Shown here piece by piece: positions 7,191-21,343 of a stretch of 64,000 nt of DNA. The position numbers and the translations under genes are program-made. The notes below the pieces were generated by a model. It made no database searches. It worked only from the letters and a program-made list of their open reading frames with translations, and was not told the origin of the DNA. Origin of the DNA: Acidocella sp. (GTDB lineage: Bacteria; Pseudomonadota; Alphaproteobacteria; Acetobacterales; Acetobacteraceae); assembly GCA_027308685.1 (NCBI GenBank), contig DAIDEE010000030.1:29089-93088 (forward strand), read 5' to 3'. Position 1 is the first letter of the stretch. Each line of letters starts with the position of its first letter.

Positions 7191-8624
7191 TTAAGCCGAG
7201 TAATACATTTCAAACTCAACCGGGTGCGGGGTGTGCTCGAAACGATACACATCTTTCCATTTCAGTTCGATATAGCTCTCAATCTGCTCCTTACTGAACA
7301 CGTCGCCGGCCAGCAGGAACTCATGGTTGGCTTCCAAATTCACCAAGGCTTCGCGCAGTGAACCGCAAACCGTCGGGATGCCTTTCAGCTCTTCCGGCGG
7401 CAGGTCATACAAGTCCTTGTCCATCGGATCGCCCGGGTGGATTTTGTTCTTGATACCATCCAGCCCGGCCATCGCAATGGCGGAGAACGCCAGATACGGG
7501 TTGGCGGTCGGGTCAGGGAAGCGCACTTCAACGCGCTTGGCCTTCGGGCTGGTGGTGTACGGAATCCGGCACGAAGCCGAACGGTTACGCGCTGAATACG
7601 CCAGCAACACCGGCGCCTCGAACCCAGGGATCAACCTTTTGTAGCTGTTGGTGGAAGGGTTCGTGAACGCGTTGATCGACTTGGCATGTTTGATAATGCC
7701 ACCAATGAAATACAGGCACATCTCAGAGAGATCAGCATAACCATTCCCCGCAAACAACGGCTTGCCGGCTTTCCAGATCGACTGGTGGGTATGCATACCC
7801 GAGCCGTTATCGCCATAGATCGGCTTCGGCATAAAGGTCGCGGTCTTGCCATACGAATGCGCGACGTTGTGGACGCAGTATTTATAAATCTGCATCTGGT
7901 CGGCCATCTTGGTCAGTGTGCCGAACCGGGTTCCCAACTCGTGCTGGCTCTGCGCCACTTCATGGTGATGCTTTTCAATCGGCAGGCCCATCTCGCCCAT
8001 CGCAGAGAGCATTTCAGCGCGCAAATCAGAATCACCATCCACCGGTGGAACCGGGAAATAGCCACCCTTCACAGACGGACGATGGCCCATGTTGCCTTCC
8101 GGATAGTCCTTCATCGAGGAACCGGGGCCTTCAATGCTGTCCACCTGGTAGGTGCCGAAGTTACCGCCGGTGCCAAACTTCACGCTATCAAAAATGAAGA
8201 ACTCAGCCTCCGCACCCACCACAATCTGGTCGCCGATGCCGGTTGACTTCAAATAGGCTTCCACCTTCTTAGCGGTCGAGCGCGGGTCGCGGGCGTAGCC
8301 CTGGCCGGTCGAAGGCTCAATGATATCGCAGAACAAAATCAGGCTCGGCTTGGCCGCAAACGGGTCCATCACCGCGGTTTCAACGTCCGGCTGCAAAATC
8401 ATGTCGGATTCGTTGATGGCTTTCCAGCCGGCGATGGAAGAACCATCGAACATGAAGCCGTCCTTCAGGGCGTCTGCATCGACCGTCGAAATATGCTGGG
8501 CGGTGTGCTGCCACTTGCCTTTCGGGTCGGTGAAACGAAGATCGACGTATTCAACGCCGTTCTCCTTAATCATCTCTAAAACTTTTGCGATTCCATCGTC
8601 AGTTCCAGCGGGCTTCTTCGCCAT
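7191..8624 (-). CDS. glnA: glutamine synthetase, type I
   Basis: GlnA condenses glutamate and ammonia to glutamine using ATP, as a dodecamer in the cytoplasm. The 477-residue product has the GSI landmarks: [10 protein letters not shown] near the N-terminus, [23 protein letters not shown] (ATP and metal binding), [10 protein letters not shown], and the adenylylation loop [10 protein letters not shown] with Tyr406 equivalent to the modified Tyr397 of enteric enzymes, so GlnE-type control is expected. It follows glnB on the same strand after about 150 bases containing a hairpin, and ends at a bidirectional terminator. Confidence 0.98.
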
Positions 8625-8720
8625 GCTCTATCCCCGTTTATATCAAAGGTTGTTTGTCCACGCGCAACAAAACCGCACCATGCGGCATTTGCTGCCCACT
8701 ATCCTCTGTGCAACGCCAGG

Positions 8721-8747
8721 CGCGGCATAGCAAGCCACCATGCCGCG
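8721..8747 (-). promoter_or_regulatory. hairpin in the glnB-glnA intergenic region
   Basis: CGCGGCAT (8721-8728) and ATGCCGCG (8740-8747) form a perfect eight-base stem with an 11-base loop in the glnB-glnA spacer. There is no following T-run on the minus strand, so it is not a classical terminator. It may instead stabilise or process the mRNA and set the glnB:glnA ratio (inference). Confidence 0.45.
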
Positions 8748-8775
8748 TCCACAGCTATACAAATGAACGAAGCGG

Positions 8776-9267
<492 letters not shown>

Positions 9268-10704: not shown

Positions 10705-11274
10705 ATGATCGCCGCCCTCATCCTGGCCGGTGGCCGGGGCAGCCGGCTCGGTGGGGCCGACAAGGCTTTCTTGACCATGAACGGCCAGCCCCTCATCGCG
10801 CATCTGCTCGCCCGCCTCACCCCGCAAGTGCCCACCATCGCCATCAGCGCCAACGGCGACCCCACCCGCTTCGCTGCGTTCGGCCTGCCGGTGCTGCCAG
10901 ACCTTCACCGTGGCAAAGGCCCGCTGGCCGGTGTTGCCGCCGGGCTGGCCTGGGCCGCTGACATTGGGGCCGCCGCCCTTCTCACCGTCCCGGTGGATAC
11001 GCCCTATATTCCGCACAACCTCGCGGAGCGTCTCGCCCCAGCGCCGTCGGTTAGCTGTTACCGGGGCCGCCAGCACCATCTGGCAGCGCTCTGGCCGGTT
11101 GATTGCCTGCCGATGTTGGAACGATTTTTAGAGCCAGAGGGTAAATACAAAGTACGGGACTTCCTGAAGCTCATCCGCGCCCGGCAAGTTTCGTTCAACG
11201 CGCCCTATGACCCCTTCCTGAACATCAACACCCCCGAAGACCTCGAAGCCGCTACAGCGCTTCAGGCAATTTGA
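10705..11274 (+). CDS. mobA: molybdenum cofactor guanylyltransferase
   Basis: MobA attaches GMP from GTP to molybdopterin, giving the MGD cofactor used by DMSO-reductase-family enzymes. The 189-residue product has the nucleotidyltransferase signature [17 protein letters not shown] at the N-terminus and the metal-binding [10 protein letters not shown] further on, then NINTPEDL at the end. It lies 23 bases after tRNA-His and is convergent with arsH, whose 3' end it overlaps by 23 bases. A molybdoenzyme that would need this cofactor is encoded about 5 kb away. Confidence 0.93.
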
Positions 11275-11941
11275 ACGCCGCTTTGCGCTCGCTGTACCGA
11301 TCCACCAGATAATCCGCCCGGTCGCGCAGCAGCCAGGTAAAGCGCAGCAATTCTTCCATCACATCCACCAACCGGTCATACAGCGGGCCAGGCTTCATCC
11401 GGCCCTCGGCATCAAATTGCGTATAGGCCATCGGCACGCTGGATTGGTTGGGAATGGTGAACATCCGCATCCAGCGCCCCAGCAGCCGCAGCGTGTTCAC
11501 CGCATTGAAACTTTGCGAACCGCCGGAGACCTGTAACACCGCCAGCGTACGCCCCTGAGTTGGGCGTATTGAAGCCTCCTCAAGCGGCAGCCAGTCGATC
11601 TGGTTTTTGAAAACACCGGTGATGGCACCGTGCATTTCCGGGCTGCACCAGACTTGACCCTCCGACCATAGCGAGAGCGCGCGCAACGCCTGCACCTTCG
11701 GATGGGTTTTCGGCACGCTGTTCGCCACCGGCAACTCACGCGGGTCGAAGATTTTCACCTCCGCCCCCATCAGTTCCAGCAGCCGCGCCGCTTCCTCAAT
11801 CAGCAGCCGGCTGTAGGAAACCTCACGCAGCGAGCCATACAACAATAAAATACGCGGCTTGTGGGTGGCGCGGACCGCAGGTTCCAACCGCTGCACATCA
11901 GGCGCGTGCAACAAATCCACGCGCAAATTCGGCAAGCTCAT
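11252..11941 (-). CDS. arsH: arsenical resistance protein ArsH (NADPH-dependent flavoprotein)
   Basis: ArsH is an FMN-binding NADPH oxidoreductase that oxidises trivalent organoarsenicals. The 229-residue product has the flavodoxin-like phosphate loop [12 protein letters not shown], the [21 protein letters not shown] segment typical of the NADPH-dependent FMN reductase family, and the extended ArsH C-terminus. The start at 11941 ([11 protein letters not shown]) gives an ATGA overlap with the arsB stop. It is the last gene of the ars operon. Confidence 0.93.
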
Positions 11942-13230
11942 GCGCCCAGCACCCGCAACCATAAATCCAGCGCCACCAGCACCACCAACAGTACTGGCGG
12001 GGTGATGCTAAGGCCGACTTTCATGTATTGCCCCCAGGTAATGCTAATGCCCTTGCGCCCCAGCACGTTCAGCCACAGCAATGTCGCCAGGCTGCCGATC
12101 GGGGTGAATTTCGGTCCGAGATCACAGCCGATGATATTCGCATAAATCATCAACTCGCGGGTCAACGGCTGCAGGTTTGTTGCCTGCTCGATCGAGAGCG
12201 TGCCCACCAGCACACCCGGCATGTTGTTCATCACCGACGATAGCAACGCCGCGCCAAAGCCAGTACCAATGGTGGCCACCATGCCACCTTGCCCCGCCAG
12301 CCATGCCAGCCCATACGCCAAGTAACCAGTGAGGCCGGCATTGCGCAGCCCATACACCACCAGATACATGCCGAGCGAAAAAATCACGATCTGCCAGGGT
12401 GCATTTCGCATAACCTTACCCACCGAAATCACATGCCCCTTGGCGGCGAGCGCCAATAATACCGCCGCACCAGCGCAGGTGACCACCGAAACCGGCACAC
12501 CCAAAGGCGCAAACACAAAATACGCCACCAACAATAACCCTAATATCGGAAACGCGGCTTTGAAAATCACCTTGTCACGAATCGCGTGCACCGGGTCCTC
12601 AATATTTCCCAGGTCGTATCGCACGGGTACCACCCGCGCATAGAACGCCCACAGCACCGCCAACGTGACCAGCGTGGAAACAATATCCACCGGCACCATG
12701 ACCAGCGCATAACGGTTGAAGGTGATGTTGAAATAATTAGCACTGACGATGTTGACCAGATTTGAAATGATCAACGGCAGGCTGGTGGTATCAGCCACAA
12801 ACCCGGTAGCCACCACAAAGGCTAATGTCTGCACGGGGGTAAATTCCAGCCGCAGCAAAATCGCCACCATGATTGGGGTGAGCAACAGAGCCGCACCGTC
12901 GTTGGCAAACACCGCCGAGATAGCTGCCCCCAGCAGCACCACCAGCGGGAACAAAAACCGCCCGCGCCCGCCGCCCCAACGCGCCACATGCAGCGCCGCC
13001 CATTCAAAAAACCCTGCTTCGTCCAACAATAATGATATAATGATCAACGCGACGAAGGTAAAAGTGGCATCCCATACAATATGCCACACCGCGCTGATAT
13101 CGTGCCAATGCACCACGCCGGTCGCCAACGCCACCGCCGCCCCTGCCAGCGCACTCCAGCCAATACCGAGGCCACGCGGCTGCCAGATGACAAACACCAA
13201 GGTTACTAAAAATATCGCCAGCGCCAGCAT
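11938..13230 (-). CDS. arsB: arsenite efflux membrane protein ArsB
   Basis: ArsB exports arsenite/antimonite, driven by the proton gradient or an ArsA ATPase. The 430-residue protein is almost entirely hydrophobic with about 11-12 helices, and includes the family segment [19 protein letters not shown] and a C-terminal-half repeat [17 protein letters not shown]. No arsA is present, so it probably works as a secondary transporter. It lies between arsC (35-base gap) and arsH (4-base overlap). Confidence 0.93.
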
Positions 13231-13265
13231 CGGCGTCTCCTCAAATCGTCAGGTATTACCGAAAT

Positions 13266-13697
13266 TCAGCGCACGCGCTGGCCCGTGGCGTCCACCACCG
13301 CCTCGCCATCTTCCTTGGAAAATGCGGCTTTTTGCGGTTCGGGTAGAATATCCAGCACCAGCTCCGAAGGCCGGCACAGCCGCACGCCCAGCGGGGTCAC
13401 CACGATCGGACGATTCAACAAAATCGGGTGCTGCTCGATGGCGTCAAGCAATTCATCATCGCTCAGCGCCGGATTATCCAGGCCAAGCTCCGTATAGGGT
13501 GTATCCTTCTCGCGCAGCCAGTCACGTAATTTCACCCCAGCCCGCACGCTCAGTTGCCTGATCACTTCACGCCCTGGCGGGGTTTTCATATATTCAATCA
13601 CCAACGGCTCAATCCCGGCATTGCGGATCATCGCCAGCACATTGCGCGCCGTGCCGCATTGCGGATTGAAATAGATCACAACATCAGCAGCACTCAT
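13266..13697 (-). CDS. arsC: arsenate reductase, glutaredoxin-dependent type
   Basis: This enzyme reduces arsenate to arsenite with glutathione and glutaredoxin. The 143-residue product matches the plasmid R773 ArsC type: the active-site Cys in YFNPQCGTARNVL, an arginine in the LRDWLREKDTPY segment and the RPIVVTPLGVRLCRPSELVLDIL motif with two further oxyanion-binding arginines. An in-frame GTG lies one codon upstream, but the ATG at 13697, overlapping the preceding stop by one base, is preferred. Confidence 0.94.
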   Translation of the reverse strand: MSAADVVIYFNPQCGTARNVLAMIRNAGIEPLVIEYMKTPPGREVIRQLSVRAGVKLRDWLREKDTPYTELGLDNPALSDDELLDAIEQHPILLNRPIVVTPLGVRLCRPSELVLDILPEPQKAAFSKEDGEAVVDATGQRVR

Positions 13698-14575
13698 CAC
13701 GCCACTCCCGGGCGCGGCGAGGTTGTGCCCTCGAGCCTGCCAATGTCACGCAGCTTGGTGCCGAGCGCCATTTGATCGATACTGGCCAGCGGCAGGCTGA
13801 GAAACACGCCAATCCGGGTGCGTAAATATTTGAAGGCCTGCACGAAAGCTTTTTCCTTTTCAATATCCGGCCCCTGCACCGAAGCCGGGTCGTCGATCCC
13901 CCAATGCGCCGTCATCGGATGTCCCGGCCAGACCGGGCAAACCTCACCCGCGGCGTTGTCACACACCGTGAATACAAAATCCATCACCGGGGCATTGGCT
14001 CCAGAAAACTCATCCCAGCTTTTGGAACGTGCCCCCGCGGCGGGGTAGCCATAACCTTCCAGCACCTTCAGCGCGAACGGATTGACCGTGCCATTGGGGT
14101 AACTCCCCGCCGAGTGGGCGCGGAAATGGCCGCCGCCGTCGCGCTGCAAAATCGCCTCCGCCATGATCGAGCGGGCCGAATTGCCGGTGCATAAAAACAT
14201 CACGTTATAAATTCTGTCAGGCATGAAAGCTCTCCTTTCCTCGTCACAGCACGGCATTAAATCCGCCACCAGCGGCGCGCATAAATCGGCATTGCCGCCA
14301 CAACAATCCGCCGCCAGAAACAACATCACCGCGCGCAGCTTGGAGATTTCAGCGCGATAGATGATCGAGCGGCTATCACGGCGGCTACTCACCAAACCGG
14401 CCCGCGCCAGCACCGAAAGATGCGCCGACATGGTGTTGGCCGGCACACCCAAATCCCGCGCCAAATCCCCCGCCGCGATCCCCGCAGGCTCAGCCCGCAC
14501 CAAGGCACGAAACACCGCGAGGCGCGTCTCCTGAGCTAAGGCCCCGAACACTGCAATGGCGTCATTTGATTCCAT
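13697..14575 (-). CDS. ArsR-ArsC fusion: metalloregulator joined to LMW-phosphatase-type arsenate reductase
   Basis: This 292-residue protein joins two functions. Residues 1-115 form an ArsR winged helix (AGDLARDLGVPANTMSAHLS recognition region, SIIYRAEISKL wing) followed by a cysteine cluster DCCGGNADLC (Cys91, Cys92, Cys99) and CC at 109-110, plausible arsenite ligands. Residues about 118-292 form a low-molecular-weight phosphatase-like ArsC with the loop LCTGNSARS (Cys129-x5-Arg135) and a TVCDNAAGEVCP segment carrying two more cysteines. There is no stop or frameshift at the joint. As first gene of the ars operon it could be both sensor and enzyme. The domain calls are firm; how the two halves interact is unknown. 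Confidence 0.93.
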   Translation of the reverse strand: MESNDAIAVFGALAQETRLAVFRALVRAEPAGIAAGDLARDLGVPANTMSAHLSVLARAGLVSSRRDSRSIIYRAEISKLRAVMLFLAADCCGGNADLCAPLVADLMPCCDEERRAFMPDRIYNVMFLCTGNSARSIMAEAILQRDGGGHFRAHSAGSYPNGTVNPFALKVLEGYGYPAAGARSKSWDEFSGANAPVMDFVFTVCDNAAGEVCPVWPGHPMTAHWGIDDPASVQGPDIEKEKAFVQAFKYLRTRIGVFLSLPLASIDQMALGTKLRDIGRLEGTTSPRPGVA

Positions 14576-16368: not shown

Positions 16369-16516
16369 GGGCGGCAATCTCGAACCAACCGAGGCAAACC
16401 GCAAGGCGATATCTTGCCGCAAAATCATCGCCACGCCGTAAAAGTCTCTTTCCCAACGCAAAATTACCGGTAAGATAAGAAGTTTATGACCAGGAACTTT
16501 TTACCAAGGCCTGCCG

Positions 16517-18529
16517 ATGCGTGAGATCGTCAAAACCACCTGCCCGCGCGACTGCTACGACGCCTGCGGCATTGCGGTGGTGAAGCATGACGGCGTGATT
16601 ACCAAGGTGCTGGGCGACCCCGAACATCCGGTCTCGCGCGGCGCTTTGTGCGGCAAATGTGCGCTGGCCTATAATGGCATCTGGCGCGACCCCGAAGCCC
16701 GCCTGACCACGCCGCTGAAGCGGACCGGCAAAAAGGGCGAGGGGAAATTTGCCGCCGCCAGTTGGGACGAGGCGCTGGCCGATATCGCCGCCAAACTCAA
16801 TGCCATCCGCGCTGAAAACCCTGCGAAAATTCTGCATACTCATTACACCGGCACGGTGGCCATGCTGGCCGGCAGCTTCGGGATGCGGTTTTTCAACGCC
16901 ATCGGCGCGACCGAGGTGGACCCGGATTCGGTGTGCAACAAGGCCGGGCATGTGGCGCTGAACTGGACGCTGGGCGATAGCTGCACCGGCTTCGACCCGC
17001 GCGCCGCCGCGTCGGCTGCCTGCATCATGGTGTGGGGCGCCAACCCGTTCGCCAGCGCCCCGCATATGCACAAGCACTGGCTGGCCGAAGCCCCCGGTAA
17101 AATCATCGTCATCGACCCGATCCGCCACCCCACCGCCGCGATGGCGCATTTACACCTGCAACTCCGCCCTGGGTCGGATGCAGCTTTGGCATTCGGCTTC
17201 ATGCATATCGCCCAGCGCGACGGCCTGCTTGACGCGGATTTTATCGAAAATCACGTCATCGGCTGGGATGAATTGGCCCCAGACATTGCCAAAGCCACGC
17301 CGGAATGGACCGCCGCCGCCACTGATTTACCCGCCGCACTGATCGAGCAAGCGGCGAGACTTTACGCCACCGGGCCTTCGTTGCTGTGGCTCGGCCAGGG
17401 CGTGCAGCGGCAACCCAAAGGCGGCAACGTGTTCCGCGCCGCCGCTGCGCTGGCCGCCGTCACTGGCAACCTCGCCAAACCCGACGCCGGGCTGTGCTAC
17501 CTCAACGGCCCCGCTACCCGTGGCGTGGATATGGGCAAGCTCACCGCCGCGCACCTCGCCGGGCCGGGTGGCGCCCCCTCCATTTCGCACCTCGACCTCG
17601 CCGAAACATTAGCCAACCCCACCCGCGCCGCAGCCCTGCTGTGCTGGAACAACAACATCCTGGCCTCGTCGCCGCGTCAGGCGATGCTACGGCAGTCGCT
17701 CGCCCGCGAAGATTTATTGCATATCTGTCTCGATCTGTTTTCCACAGACACCACCGATTATGCCGACTGGATTCTACCCGCCGCCAGCTTCCTGGAGTTT
17801 GATGATCTGGTGCTGCCGTATTTCAATCTCACCGTCAGCGCCCAGGTAAAAGCCGCCGCGCCGATGGGGAATTCACTCCCCAACCAGGAAATTTTCCGCC
17901 GCTTATCCCGCGCCATGGGGCTGAATGCGCCTGAGCTTTACGAGGGCGACGATCAAATTCTGAACAATCTCGTCGCCACCACCGGCGTTGCAAATAATTT
18001 TGCACAACTGGTGGCAAGCGGCACACAAGAATTTTCCACAACCATCGTTACGCCGTTTGCCAATAAAATCTTTCCCACCCCATCTGGCAAAGTGGAAATA
18101 TCCTCCGAACAAGCTGTAGCCGCCGGAGCCCCCAAACGCCCCTTTGCCCACGCCGATGCGCCCGCCGCCAACAACAGCTTACGCGTGCTCTCCCCCGCCT
18201 CGCCCTGGACCATGAACAGCGCTTACGCCAACGACCCCAAAATCCGCGAGAGGCTCGGCGAAGCCACCGTCAGCCTGCACCCCGAAGACGCCACCGCCCG
18301 CAACCTGACTGAAGGCAGTATGGTTCGTCTCTCCAACCATGAAGATAAAATCACCCTGAAACTGCATCTCGATGCCACCTTGCCGCGCGGCGTGGCGCTG
18401 GCCCCCAAAGGCCGCTGGCCGCGCTTCTCACACGGTTCCAACATCAACGCACTTTATAACGGTGCCCATGCCGACATCGGCGAGAGCACCGCCATTCACG
18501 GCATCGAAGCGGAGATAACCCCAGCATGA
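16517..18529 (+). CDS. molybdopterin-dependent oxidoreductase, DMSO reductase family
   Basis: This 670-residue bis-MGD enzyme carries an N-terminal 4Fe-4S motif Cys9-x3-Cys13-x3-Cys17-x27-Cys45, an internal VWGANPFASAPHMHKHW cofactor-binding region and a C-terminal molydopterin dinucleotide domain. The region where the family places its Mo ligand reads DSVCNKAGHVALN; which residue contacts Mo, if any, is not clear by eye. There is no Tat signal, so it is probably cytoplasmic. The electron donor or acceptor and the substrate are unknown. Its stop overlaps the next gene by four bases (ATGA). It belongs with the formate-dehydrogenase-like part of the family but lacks associated FdhF/FdhD genes here. 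Confidence 0.88.
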   Translation: MREIVKTTCPRDCYDACGIAVVKHDGVITKVLGDPEHPVSRGALCGKCALAYNGIWRDPEARLTTPLKRTGKKGEGKFAAASWDEALADIAAKLNAIRAENPAKILHTHYTGTVAMLAGSFGMRFFNAIGATEVDPDSVCNKAGHVALNWTLGDSCTGFDPRAAASAACIMVWGANPFASAPHMHKHWLAEAPGKIIVIDPIRHPTAAMAHLHLQLRPGSDAALAFGFMHIAQRDGLLDADFIENHVIGWDELAPDIAKATPEWTAAATDLPAALIEQAARLYATGPSLLWLGQGVQRQPKGGNVFRAAAALAAVTGNLAKPDAGLCYLNGPATRGVDMGKLTAAHLAGPGGAPSISHLDLAETLANPTRAAALLCWNNNILASSPRQAMLRQSLAREDLLHICLDLFSTDTTDYADWILPAASFLEFDDLVLPYFNLTVSAQVKAAAPMGNSLPNQEIFRRLSRAMGLNAPELYEGDDQILNNLVATTGVANNFAQLVASGTQEFSTTIVTPFANKIFPTPSGKVEISSEQAVAAGAPKRPFAHADAPAANNSLRVLSPASPWTMNSAYANDPKIRERLGEATVSLHPEDATARNLTEGSMVRLSNHEDKITLKLHLDATLPRGVALAPKGRWPRFSHGSNINALYNGAHADIGESTAIHGIEAEITPA

Positions 18530-19254
18530 GACTTTTGGTTTTCCAGCATATCGCCTCCGAGCATCCCGGCAGCTTCCGCGACGTGATGCAGGCCTACGGC
18601 CACACCTGGGAGGCGGTTGAGCTTGACGAGGGCGAGGCGATTCCACCGCTCGATGATTGTGACGCACTCCTCGTCATGGGCGGGCCGATGGATGTATGGG
18701 AGGAGGCTGAACACCCCTGGTTGGTGGCCGAAAAAGCCGCCATCCGCAACTGGGTAATGGCAGGCCGCCCCTATCTTGGCATGTGCCTCGGCCACCAGCT
18801 TCTCGCCGAGGCCTGCGGTGGTGAGGCTAAATTAATGACCGCCCCGCCTGAAGTCGGCATCAGCCGCGTCACCCTCAGCCCCGACCCGCTGTTCGAGGAT
18901 GTGGGCGAGGTTTGCACCTGCTTTCAGTGGCACGGCGCGGAAGTGACCAAACTGCCGCCTGGCGGGCGCGTCATCGCCACCTCACCGGGTTGCGCCATTC
19001 AGGCCCAGGCCCTCGGCAGCCACGCTTATGGGCTGCAATTTCACATGGAACTCACCCACACCACCGCCGCCGAATGGGGTGCCATTCCGCAATATATTGC
19101 GGCCCTGGAACGGGTGAAGGGCCCAGGTGCCCTGCCCGCCATTCAGACAAGTGTTGAACAGAACTTCCCGGCATTGCACAGTGCCGCCACCACGATCTTC
19201 AGCAACTTCCTGAACATCGCGGCCCGCACCATCAGCGCCCAACAAGCCGCATAG
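18526..19254 (+). CDS. class I glutamine amidotransferase-like protein
   Basis: This 242-residue stand-alone glutaminase-type domain has the triad visible as Cys87 in YLGMCLGHQLL and His173-x-Glu175 in QFHMEL. The oxyanion region is VMGGPMDVWEE. The fold resembles the GATase of GMP synthase and the gamma-glutamyl hydrolases. Position between a molybdoenzyme (4-base overlap) and a GS-like ligase (12-base gap) suggests it hydrolyses a gamma-glutamyl intermediate, as PuuD does, or transfers ammonia. That role is inference. Confidence 0.85.
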   Translation: MRLLVFQHIASEHPGSFRDVMQAYGHTWEAVELDEGEAIPPLDDCDALLVMGGPMDVWEEAEHPWLVAEKAAIRNWVMAGRPYLGMCLGHQLLAEACGGEAKLMTAPPEVGISRVTLSPDPLFEDVGEVCTCFQWHGAEVTKLPPGGRVIATSPGCAIQAQALGSHAYGLQFHMELTHTTAAEWGAIPQYIAALERVKGPGALPAIQTSVEQNFPALHSAATTIFSNFLNIAARTISAQQAA

Positions 19255-19266
19255 GGACCCCACGCA

Positions 19267-20616
19267 ATGTCACGCCCGTATTTCCACCACACGCCTGAAA
19301 CCGCCAGCGACTTCGCCCAAAACCTCCGCGAAAACTCGGTTGAATATGTCCGTTTTGAACTGCCCGACCTCGCCGGCCTCTCTCGCGGTAAAACCGTGCC
19401 GATGAACCATGTGGAAAGCTACACGCTGAATGGGTTGAACCTTTACGGCGGTGCCGTCACGCTGGATTCCGCGTCCATCCCCATCCAAGGCACTGGCTAT
19501 AACGAGGATATCAACTTCGCTGACTGTCTGATGATCCCGGACCCGGACACCGTGAGCAACGTACCCTGGCTTGCCAACACCGCGCGGGTGATCTGCGATA
19601 CCAAATGGTATGACGGCCGCCCGCAACCCGCCGCCCCCCGCACCGTGCTGAAAAACATCCTCAGCCTCGCCGCCCAAATGGGTTACGGCGTGAAAATGGG
19701 CCATGAGTATGAATTTTATGTGGTGGACGCCGCCACCCGCAAACCGCTTTACACCGGCCAGCCGATCTTCGTCACCTCACTGCTGCACCAGCACCCGGCG
19801 CTTGATAAACTGATGCGCGTGCTGAACCTCAGCGGCGTTGATATGATCACCGCCAACGGCGAATATGGCCCGAGCCAATGGGAGCTGAACTTCGCCGCCG
19901 CTGACGGCATTGCCGCCGCTGACCGCGCCTTCGTGTTCAAAAATACCGTCAAGGAATTTCTGCACACTGAAGGCCTGCTGGCCACCTTCATGACCAAGCC
20001 GTACAAGGGTCTTGCAGGTTCCTGCTCGCATTTTCATATCTCATTGTACGACCTCGCGACCGGGCGCAACGTGTTTCTTGATGCCAGCGACAAGGACGGC
20101 ATGAGCCCGATCATGAAGCAATTCACCGCCGGGATCCTGGAACACGCCGCCGCCGCGCAGGCAATTTGGAACCCCACGCCGAACTGCTACCGCCGCATCC
20201 GCCCGCATACGTTCGCCCCCTCCAATATCTCGTGGGGCGTGGAAGACCGTTCCGCCTCGGTGCGCATCAAGGCCAGCAAGGACAAGCGCCAGCACCTTGA
20301 AGTGCGGGTGCCCTCAGCGCTTTCCAACCCCTACCTCACCGCCGCCGCCACCATTGCCGCCGGGCTGTTGGGCATGCAGCATGAGAGCGTGCTGGCGCCG
20401 GAGCGTTCCGGCCTGAAGGAAGCTGACGACAGCTTCAAAAAACTGCCGACCGAGATGCATGAATCACTCGCGGCACTGGAGGCCGATACCGATTTCATCC
20501 ACATGCTGGGCTCGGAATTTGTCGGTGTATTCCAGAAAGTGAAAGCCGCTGAGATATTGCGCCTGCGCGAGGATATTCCGGCTGCCGAGACCAACGAATA
20601 TTTCGATTTATATTGA
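19267..20616 (+). CDS. glutamine synthetase-like ATP-dependent ligase (PuuA/GlnA-like)
   Basis: This 449-residue member of the glutamine synthetase superfamily is distinct from the GlnA at 7191. It keeps the metal and substrate motifs: MGHEYEFYVVD, NGEYGPSQWELNF (Glu ligands), GSCSHFHISLYD (His) and RIKASKDKRQHLEVRVPSALSNPYL. It lacks the GlnA adenylylation loop [10 protein letters not shown]. Relatives gamma-glutamylate amines such as putrescine (PuuA) or methylamine (GmaS). The amine here is unknown. Being 12 bases behind the amidotransferase supports a gamma-glutamyl pathway. Confidence 0.88.
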   Translation: MSRPYFHHTPETASDFAQNLRENSVEYVRFELPDLAGLSRGKTVPMNHVESYTLNGLNLYGGAVTLDSASIPIQGTGYNEDINFADCLMIPDPDTVSNVPWLANTARVICDTKWYDGRPQPAAPRTVLKNILSLAAQMGYGVKMGHEYEFYVVDAATRKPLYTGQPIFVTSLLHQHPALDKLMRVLNLSGVDMITANGEYGPSQWELNFAAADGIAAADRAFVFKNTVKEFLHTEGLLATFMTKPYKGLAGSCSHFHISLYDLATGRNVFLDASDKDGMSPIMKQFTAGILEHAAAAQAIWNPTPNCYRRIRPHTFAPSNISWGVEDRSASVRIKASKDKRQHLEVRVPSALSNPYLTAAATIAAGLLGMQHESVLAPERSGLKEADDSFKKLPTEMHESLAALEADTDFIHMLGSEFVGVFQKVKAAEILRLREDIPAAETNEYFDLY

Positions 20617-20627
20617 TGGCGATCCTC

Positions 20628-20660
20628 GTCGTCATCCCCGCGCCAGCGGGGGCCTCCCCA
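20628..20660. repeat. REP-like palindromic element
   Basis: The GTCATCCCCGCGCCAGCGGGG stretch forms a CCCCGC/GCGGGG hairpin with a four-base loop. It resembles the CGTCATCCCCGC...GCGGGG palindromes scattered between genes in many alphaproteobacteria. It sits between the GS-like gene and the TIM-barrel gene. Only one clear copy was seen in this window. Confidence 0.45.
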
Positions 20661-20677
20661 GCCAGTTGCCGCACGCC

Positions 20678-21343
20678 ATGAACTTCATCTTCATGCTTAC
20701 CCGCGATGACCGCACCATTCCCGACTGCCTCGATGTCATCGCGCAAATCATGCCCCTCAACATCTGCCACATCGGCTTCAAGGACATCGGCGCTGATCTG
20801 GAAACCCTCAGAACCCTCAACCAAAAAATCCAAGCCAGCGGTGCGGTCAGCTATCTCGAAGTGGTGGCGACCTCTCCGCAAGCCGCCCTCAACTCCGCCC
20901 GGATGGCGGTGGAAATCGGCGTTAACCGCCTGCTTGGTGGCACACAGGTTGCTGAAACACTAGACATACTGAACGGCTCAAATATCAACTACTACCCGTT
21001 TCCCGGCACCCCCAGCGGACACCCCACCAAACTCGGCGGCACGCCCACGCAAATCCACGCCCACACCTGCGATTTTTTGGCGCAGGGCTGCGACGGGGTG
21101 GATTTGCTGGCGTACCGCGCCACTGAGGCCGAGCCGGTGGCCCTCGTTGAAGCCGCCCGCCGCGCGCTGGGGGATAAAACCCTGATCGTCGCCGGTGATA
21201 TCAATGGCCCTGAACGCATCGCCGCCGTCCGCAACGCGGGAGCCGACGCTTTCACCATCGGCTCCGCCGCCTTCAACCTATCCTTCTCCCCCGCCACCAC
21301 CCTCACTGGCCAGTTGCAGGCGATTATGGAGTGTGTGGGGTAA
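20678..21343 (+). CDS. TIM-barrel protein of unknown function
   Basis: This 221-residue protein has alternating beta/alpha units and a C-terminal phosphate-binding-like pattern: DKTLIVAGDINGPERIAAVRNAGADAFTIGSAAF resembles the last two strands of HisA/HisF/TrpC-type barrels. An earlier NRLLGGTQ and an FPGTPSGHPTKLGG segment could shape the active site. The track starts at a TTG, but the ATG at 20678 (MNFIFMLTRDD) is preferred. It follows the GS-like gene by 61 bases with a palindrome between, so it may be the fourth gene of the operon. No specific reaction can be named. Confidence 0.6.
   Translation: MNFIFMLTRDDRTIPDCLDVIAQIMPLNICHIGFKDIGADLETLRTLNQKIQASGAVSYLEVVATSPQAALNSARMAVEIGVNRLLGGTQVAETLDILNGSNINYYPFPGTPSGHPTKLGGTPTQIHAHTCDFLAQGCDGVDLLAYRATEAEPVALVEAARRALGDKTLIVAGDINGPERIAAVRNAGADAFTIGSAAFNLSFSPATTLTGQLQAIMECVG

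What the first reader, a model, noticed from the sequence alone, without database searches (positions are those of the whole stretch)
16517..21343. Four-gene cluster: molybdoenzyme, stand-alone GATase, GS-like ligase and TIM-barrel protein
A DMSO-reductase-family enzyme, a class I amidotransferase with triad Cys87/His173/Glu175, a PuuA/GmaS-like ligase without the GlnA adenylylation loop and an unassigned TIM-barrel are consecutive on one strand with a 4-base overlap, a 12-base gap and a 61-base gap. GS-like plus GATase suggests gamma-glutamylation and hydrolysis of an amine. Adding a molybdoenzyme and a barrel protein does not match any pathway I can name (puu, mau/gma, eut). It could be an undescribed oxidative route for an N-containing substrate.
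Basis: partly seen in the sequence, partly recalled or inferred. Interest (0 to 1): 0.6.

Follow-up and report, generated by a model that had tools for sequence, protein, structure and literature searches.

The report
Acidocella gamma-glutamylation operon with molybdoenzyme
Four adjacent genes in an acid-loving bacterium (an Acidocella relative) form one operon that most likely ties glutamate onto an unidentified amine, processes the product and cuts the glutamate off again; the amine-tagging part is a known kind of system, but the barrel enzyme and the molybdenum enzyme attached to it have no named role.

Summary
In detail: four co-directional genes at 16517-21343 with a 4-base overlap and 12- and 61-base gaps, between divergent mutL and a convergent Band-7 gene. 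The genome is an Acidocella relative.

The complete four-gene set occurs only in about five close Acidocella genomes. There all four genes are under purifying selection (dN/dS 0.03-0.19). The parts have different histories:
- GATase + GS-like is the conserved core, next to mutL, in A. facilis, A. aminolytica and other Acetobacteraceae. A 60%-identical GS with its GATase sits on a Rhizobium plasmid.
- The GS-like protein keeps every tested metal- and glutamate-binding residue, lost the Glu flap and the adenylylation Tyr, and forms its own clade apart from PuuA, GmaS/GlnT, NpaA1 and GlnA.
- The TIM barrel is an unnamed phosphate-barrel-like family. In three distant alphaproteobacterial families it lies within 7 kb of a ~50%-identical GS, with a 2OG-Fe oxygenase, FGGY kinase, GATase or C26 hydrolase, ABC transporter and DeoR in varying combinations.
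- The molybdoenzyme is a lineage-specific addition; its 54-59% homologues elsewhere share no neighbours with it.

Best reading: a gamma-glutamylation / de-glutamylation pathway for an unknown, probably hydroxylated, amine, with the molybdoenzyme as an optional redox module. A new variant of a known kind; substrate unknown.

The parts
16464..16473 (+). Conserved palindrome TTACCGGTAA upstream of the operon; candidate promoter/operator
   Evidence: Identical in L066 and L070, degenerate in L077; TTACCGGTAAGATA occurs once in the genome with up to 1 mismatch. Function not tested.
16517..18529 (+). MoOR: cytosolic (no signal sequence seen) DMSO-reductase-superfamily enzyme, 670 aa, [4Fe-4S] Cys9/13/17/45, probable Mo ligand Cys140
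   Evidence: Pfam PF00384/PF04879/PF01568; aligns with FdhF, PhsA and acetylene hydratase but has Asn141 and Asn330 at the FdhH His141 and Arg333 positions
18526..19254 (+). Class I glutamine amidotransferase-like protein (probable gamma-glutamyl-amide hydrolase), triad Cys87-His173-Glu175
   Evidence: PF00117, motifs, 50% identical to the GATase next to the Rhizobium GS-like gene
19267..20616 (+). GS-like gamma-glutamyl-amine ligase, 449 aa
   Evidence: PF00120; E147, E149, E199, E206, H255, R310, R333, E345, R347 kept; Glu-flap position is F316 and Tyr397 position R380; own supported clade
20630..20660 (+). Short GC-rich repeat element (GTCATCCCCGCG...GCGGGG) in the GS-TIM gap
   Evidence: 4 copies of the motif in the genome; absent from L077, where the gap is 13 bases
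20678..21343 (+). TIM-barrel protein of an unnamed family, 221 aa, with a phosphate-barrel-like C-terminal half
   Evidence: No Pfam hit on its own; profile hits to HisA-type barrels; AlphaFold pLDDT 76, Foldseek best to GGGPS/PcrB, OMP decarboxylase and KDPGal aldolase at 12-18% identity

Best explanation
The four genes are one operon centred on a gamma-glutamylation cycle. The GS-like ligase uses ATP to join L-glutamate to the amino group of a small organic amine; the stand-alone class I GATase hydrolyses the gamma-glutamyl amide after (or in balance with) processing, giving back glutamate. The TIM barrel acts on the non-glutamate part, probably on a phosphorylated polyol-like intermediate. 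The molybdoenzyme was inserted in this lineage as a cytosolic redox module; possibly it stands in for oxidoreductases that accompany the same set elsewhere (2OG-Fe oxygenase, GlpD-like, SDR). Shown: operon layout, intact tested ligase and GATase catalytic residues, purifying selection, conservation of GATase-GS, and recurrent TIM-GS adjacency. Inferred: ligase/hydrolase activity on an amine, a phosphorylated hydroxyl substrate for TIM, and any role of the molybdoenzyme. The amine is not identified.
For: Layout and coordinates. GATase-GS pair next to mutL in relatives incl. A. facilis and A. aminolytica and on a Rhizobium plasmid with an ABC transporter, amidase, 2Fe-2S ferredoxin and GlyA. Other GATase/GS pairs: with a Rieske dioxygenase (NpaA1/A2; pI2), amidase (Rhodococcus), GlxC/FMN glutamate synthase (Ruegeria). 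GS residue mapping and tree. TIM near a ~50% GS in G319, G327 and G471 with a 2OG-Fe oxygenase in all three, FGGY kinase in two, class I GATase or C26 hydrolase in two, ABC transporter in two; TIM in 4 of 6 GS-bearing genomes of a 288-genome class sample vs 22/288 overall, p = 3.5e-4 uncorrected for relatedness. dN/dS. Precedents in PMC11335346 and PMC6529630.
Against: No substrate and no transporter in the operon itself. MoOR homologues (54-59%) elsewhere have no GS/GATase/TIM next door, and other genomes with GATase-GS next to mutL lack MoOR. The usual TIM neighbours are variable (SDR, PdxA2, choline-kinase-like, aldolase II). The TIM-associated SDR found in other Acidocella has no ortholog above the threshold in the window genome, so the pathway may be incomplete or different here. 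GS and GATase sequence identity to characterised amine ligases and hydrolases is only 22-35%.
Confidence: 0.6

Rival explanations
1. Only GATase-GS is a functional unit (amine gamma-glutamylation/detoxification); MoOR and TIM are unrelated genes that landed in the same transcription unit and do something else.
For: In the other Acetobacteraceae the locus is mutL-(GATase)-GS without MoOR and TIM; TIM lives elsewhere in other Acidocella, next to an SDR; MoOR homologues have unrelated neighbours.
Against: 4-base MoOR/GATase overlap and 11-13 base gaps kept in L077 despite dS near 1.1; TIM found beside GS in three distant families.
Confidence: 0.25
2. The pair serves aromatic amines, as in aniline catabolism (AtdA1/A2-like), with MoOR as an accessory oxidoreductase.
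For: One relative (L069) has the GS-like gene followed by a catechol dioxygenase and a FAD aromatic hydroxylase; AtdA1/A2 and NpaA1/A2 are the best studied GS-like + GATase-like pair (PMC11335346).
Against: GS and GATase are only 28% and 24% identical to NpaA1/NpaA2 and the GS falls in a different clade; no ring dioxygenase near the window operon; L069 has no GATase by the GS.
Confidence: 0.1
3. The GS-like protein is a genuine ammonium-dependent glutamine synthetase paralogue and the GATase a glutaminase, i.e. ordinary nitrogen assimilation.
For: Tested metal- and glutamate-binding residues intact; genome has six GS-family genes.
Against: Glu flap replaced by Phe and adenylylation Tyr absent; the genome already has a much better GlnA (461 bits) beside a putative PII gene (7191-8573 and 8776-9213); the clade is separate from GlnA.
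Confidence: 0.05

Closest known systems
AtdA1/AtdA2 - NpaA1/NpaA2 (gamma-glutamylanilide / naphthylamine synthase plus GAT-like hydrolase)
   Same: GS-like ligase adjacent to a stand-alone class I GATase; loss of the Glu flap; the oxidising enzyme works on the gamma-glutamylated amine (PMC11335346)
   Different: 24-28% identity, separate GS clade, no Rieske dioxygenase; molybdoenzyme and TIM barrel instead
Streptomyces glnA4 ethanolamine cluster (GlnA4, SDR, ALDH, GATase)
   Same: GS-like amine ligase with dehydrogenases and a GATase gene in one conserved cluster (PMC6529630)
   Different: No ALDH or SDR in the window operon; sequences not compared here
E. coli Puu pathway (PuuA/PuuD)
   Same: Gamma-glutamylation of an amine followed by amide hydrolysis
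   Different: PuuA 26% and PuuD 25% identical; PuuD is a C26-type hydrolase (own knowledge), the window hydrolase a PF00117 protein; no PuuB/PuuC
GlxBCD/Mgs-type clusters with GlnT/GmaS (N-methylglutamate-type route)
   Same: Two relatives of the same GS clade (L111, L112; 45-46%) sit beside glutamate-synthase-like subunits
   Different: No such subunits in the window operon; GlnT is in another clade
Four-carbon acid-sugar operons (DUF1537 kinase - PdxA2)
   Same: Carry a 40-47% homologue of the TIM barrel next to PdxA2
   Different: Different TIM subgroup; no kinase or PdxA2 next to the window TIM

Membership tests
Gamma-glutamyl organic-amine ligases (GoaS / GS-like) | GS catalytic domain with metal and glutamate-binding residues intact | tested here: met
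   E147, E149, E199, E206, H255, R310, R333, E345, R347
Gamma-glutamyl organic-amine ligases (GoaS / GS-like) | Loss of the Glu flap | tested here: met
   Flap position is F316
Gamma-glutamyl organic-amine ligases (GoaS / GS-like) | Loss of Asp50' | tested here: inconclusive
   The column aligns to Y60 in the multiple alignment, but the HMMER pairwise alignment places a nearby Asp (D67) there
Gamma-glutamyl organic-amine ligases (GoaS / GS-like) | Activity with an amine, not ammonium | not testable with these tools
   needs an enzyme assay
GlnA (type I glutamine synthetase) | Tyr397 adenylylation site and Glu flap | tested here: not met
   R380 and F316 at these positions; separate clade
AtdA1/NpaA1 aniline-type synthase | Groups with NpaA1/DcaQ in a tree | tested here: not met
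PuuA | Groups with E. coli PuuA | tested here: not met
GmaS/GlnT | Groups with GlnT and passes the TIGR03105 cut-off | tested here: not met
   255.7 bits vs cut-off 469.6; tree
Class I GATase-type amide hydrolase | Cys-His-Glu triad without a fused synthase domain | tested here: met
   C87/H173/E175, 242 aa
Formate dehydrogenase (FdhF type) | Sec/Cys-His pair and Arg333 | tested here: not met
   C140-N141 and N330 in the HMMER alignment; Fdh-alpha 235 bits vs cut-off 666
HisA / PcrB / OMP decarboxylase / KDPG aldolase barrels | Passes a curated family cut-off | tested here: not met
   Only sub-threshold partial hits; fold similar with TM 0.56-0.70
Four-gene set as a widespread conserved system | All four neighbours conserved outside close relatives | tested here: not met
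   Only Acidocella clade loci L065, L066, L070/L037, L077/L038 and the window (L065 cut by its contig end)

The most novel reading that the evidence does not exclude
An undescribed pathway that uses a gamma-glutamyl tag to degrade a hydroxylated amine (an amino-polyol-like compound): GS-like ligase, GATase, a new TIM-barrel enzyme family acting on a phosphorylated intermediate and, in other Alphaproteobacteria, a 2OG-Fe oxygenase and FGGY kinase. In acidophilic Acidocella the oxidation step has been taken over by an O2-independent molybdenum enzyme.
Probability: 0.25. Interest if true: 0.7.

Novelty: new variant of a known kind. Interest (0 to 1): 0.45.

Why it matters
Gamma-glutamylation is a recurring bacterial route into amine catabolism, known for few substrates. 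This locus and its distant counterparts define an uncharacterised GS-like clade, an unnamed barrel family that travels with it, and a molybdoenzyme subgroup in an unusual operon, giving a concrete, small gene set to assay. If the substrate were found it would name a route, an enzyme family and a function for that molybdoenzyme at once.

Tried and rejected
MoOR as formate dehydrogenase: rejected on residues and scores. GS as GlnA, PuuA, GmaS or AtdA1: rejected by tree. TIM as HisA, PcrB or OMP decarboxylase: only weak superfamily-level signals. TIM-SDR coupling as the window pathway: that SDR has no ortholog above the threshold in the window genome. MoOR-TIM co-occurrence not significant (p = 0.14); MoOR-GS co-occurrence p = 4e-4 but non-adjacent, and two of the three genomes are from one family. 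A phylum-wide GS search added nothing new. The sigma-70 scan found no promoter near the operon start and no terminator-like site on the operon's strand. Library searches gave no paper describing this gene set. Gene calls in comparison loci come from my own simple codon-usage caller and can be wrong in high-GC contigs (L110 and the left end of L171 were miscalled); key genes there were re-found by tblastn.
Full report
Observation. The MoOR stop and GATase start overlap by 4 bases; the next gaps are 12 and 61 bases. mutL lies divergently upstream and a Band_7 (HflK-like) gene convergently 3 bases downstream, so this is a bounded unit. The window is G000:C50:29089-93088 of a 2.86-Mb genome; the organism titles of the nearest loci are Acidocella.

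What each protein is. MoOR has the Molybdopterin, Fe4S4 and dinucleotide-binding domains, cysteines 9/13/17/45 for a [4Fe-4S] cluster and Cys140 at the Sec140 position of FdhH. The FdhH His141 and Arg333 positions are Asn in the HMMER alignment, so it is not an ordinary formate dehydrogenase; no electron-transfer subunit is encoded next to it. The GATase has Cys87-His173-Glu175. In the GS-like protein the tested metal- and glutamate-binding residues (E147, E149, E199, E206, H255, R310, R333, E345, R347) are intact, while the Glu327 flap position is Phe316 and the Tyr397 adenylylation position is Arg380. The eLife 2024 naphthylamine study (PMC11335346) describes loss of the Glu flap and Asp50' as the hallmark of organic-amine ligases; the Asp50' column is ambiguous here. 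In an IQ-TREE phylogeny the GS-like protein lies in its own supported clade (100/99), apart from GlnA, PuuA, GlnT/GmaS and NpaA1/DcaQ.

The fourth protein has no Pfam family on its own. A 20-member profile gives partial hits to HisA-type barrels in the PDB, Pfam and NCBIfam give only sub-threshold hits to phosphate-binding barrel families, and an AlphaFold model of moderate quality (pLDDT 76, four-sequence alignment) is closest to PcrB/GGGPS, OMP decarboxylase and KDPGal aldolase at 12-18% identity. Invariant residues across the family include K35, D36, E61, H115, D142 and R147. That it binds a phosphate is an inference from the fold.

Conservation of the whole. In 250 genomes of the order MoOR is found only in the window and two relatives at E <= 1e-100, and the GS-like protein in five. 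A scan of GTDB contigs for the GS-like protein gave 14 loci. The complete set is seen only in the close Acidocella loci L066, L070, L077 and, cut by its contig end, L065. There the 4-base overlap is identical. dN/dS is 0.08-0.12 for MoOR, 0.07-0.09 for GATase, 0.03-0.07 for GS and 0.15-0.19 for TIM, with dS up to 1.2, similar to mutL and arsB for all but TIM. In L077 the GS-TIM gap is only 13 bases; the 61-base gap of the window holds a GC-rich repeat probably inserted later. A palindrome TTACCGGTAA upstream of MoOR is conserved.

Conservation of the parts. GATase-GS without MoOR and TIM is the layout in A. facilis (L075), A. aminolytica (L078) and several other Acetobacteraceae, mostly next to mutL. 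L069 has no GATase beside the GS; L076 is cut by its contig end. In L068, L072 and L076 an amidase follows. On a Rhizobium plasmid a 60% GS with its GATase is followed by an amidase, a 2Fe-2S ferredoxin and GlyA and preceded by an ABC transporter. GATase beside or near a GS-like gene also occurs in the naphthylamine plasmid and pI2 (with Rieske dioxygenases), Rhodococcus and Ruegeria. So the pair is a recurring functional unit.

TIM has two subgroups. One (40-47% to the window) sits with PdxA2, a four-carbon acid-sugar kinase and/or a cupin. The other (50% and more) includes the window. In other Acidocella it is coupled to an SDR (overlapping genes in L039-L043) that has no ortholog above the threshold in the window genome. 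In distant Alphaproteobacteria it is found with a GS-like gene about 50% identical to the window's: G319 (ABC transporter, isochorismatase, TIM, GS, 2OG-Fe oxygenase), G327 (C26 hydrolase, 2OG-Fe oxygenase, ABC genes, TIM, DeoR, GS, SDR, FGGY kinase) and G471 (2OG-Fe oxygenase, TIM, FGGY kinase, GlpD-like, Fe-ADH_2 protein, GATase, GS). G276 has FGGY kinase, 2OG-Fe oxygenase, GATase, DeoR, TIM and ABC transporter together, with its GS elsewhere. In a 288-genome sample of the class TIM occurs in 22 genomes but in 4 of the 6 with this GS clade (p = 3.5e-4, not corrected for relatedness), and the chance of adjacency is about 0.0035 per genome. This independent association is the main new result. 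It supports a functional link between TIM and the glutamylation genes and hints at a hydroxylated substrate that is phosphorylated.

MoOR. Its 54-59% homologues in other Alphaproteobacteria have no shared neighbours and no GS/GATase/TIM next door. It co-occurs with the GS clade in 3 genomes (G329, G443, G471), never adjacent, and two of these are in one family. It is a lineage-specific addition. That it replaces the oxygenase or dehydrogenase step is speculation.

Mechanism and verdict. Most likely the operon carries out gamma-glutamylation of an unknown amine, modification of the tagged compound or its carbon part, and hydrolysis of the tag. Ligase and hydrolase roles rest on residues and family precedent (PMC11335346, PMC6529630), the TIM role on fold and neighbourhood, the MoOR role on operon position only. 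The substrate cannot be told from sequence. The four-gene combination itself is confined to one Acidocella lineage.

Noticed in passing
11252-14575 (-): Arsenic resistance cluster (ArsH, ArsB, and a fused ArsR-LMW-phosphatase/ArsC-like protein; a further small gene between) next to mutL. In L066 the fused ArsR-ArsC gene is called as two ORFs.
   Followed up: partly
10705-11274 (+): A MobA-like (molybdopterin guanylyltransferase) gene, by reading its N-terminus ([18 protein letters not shown]). Present near mutL also in L068 and L073, which lack MoOR, so not tied to the operon.
   Followed up: partly
7191-9213 (-): A strong GS gene (461 bits, the GlnA-like one) beside a putative PII gene in the same window; the genome has six GS-family genes.
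   Followed up: partly
L070 11430-11474 vs 11567: The first 15 codons of TIM occur twice in L070, flanking GC-rich repeat elements: a duplication apparently linked to element insertion in the GS-TIM gap.
   Followed up: partly
L054 5814-7532: A single 572-aa ORF that starts like PdxA (MTPIAVTMGDPCGIGPEI) and contains a TIM homologue at 44%: apparently a PdxA-TIM fusion, linking this barrel family to PdxA2 chemistry. In L080, L178, L179 and L187 the TIM homologue appears fused to a cupin.
   Followed up: no
L069 3528-7770: GS-like relative followed by a catechol dioxygenase and a FAD aromatic hydroxylase, hinting at an aromatic substrate in that organism.
   Followed up: partly
GS-like clade, window residue His343: The Arg355 (ATP-site) position of GlnA is His in the window and in the clade members tabulated (L075, L068, L079, L108-L111), but Arg in GlnT, NpaA1, DcaQ and PuuA: a possible clade marker.
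   Followed up: no
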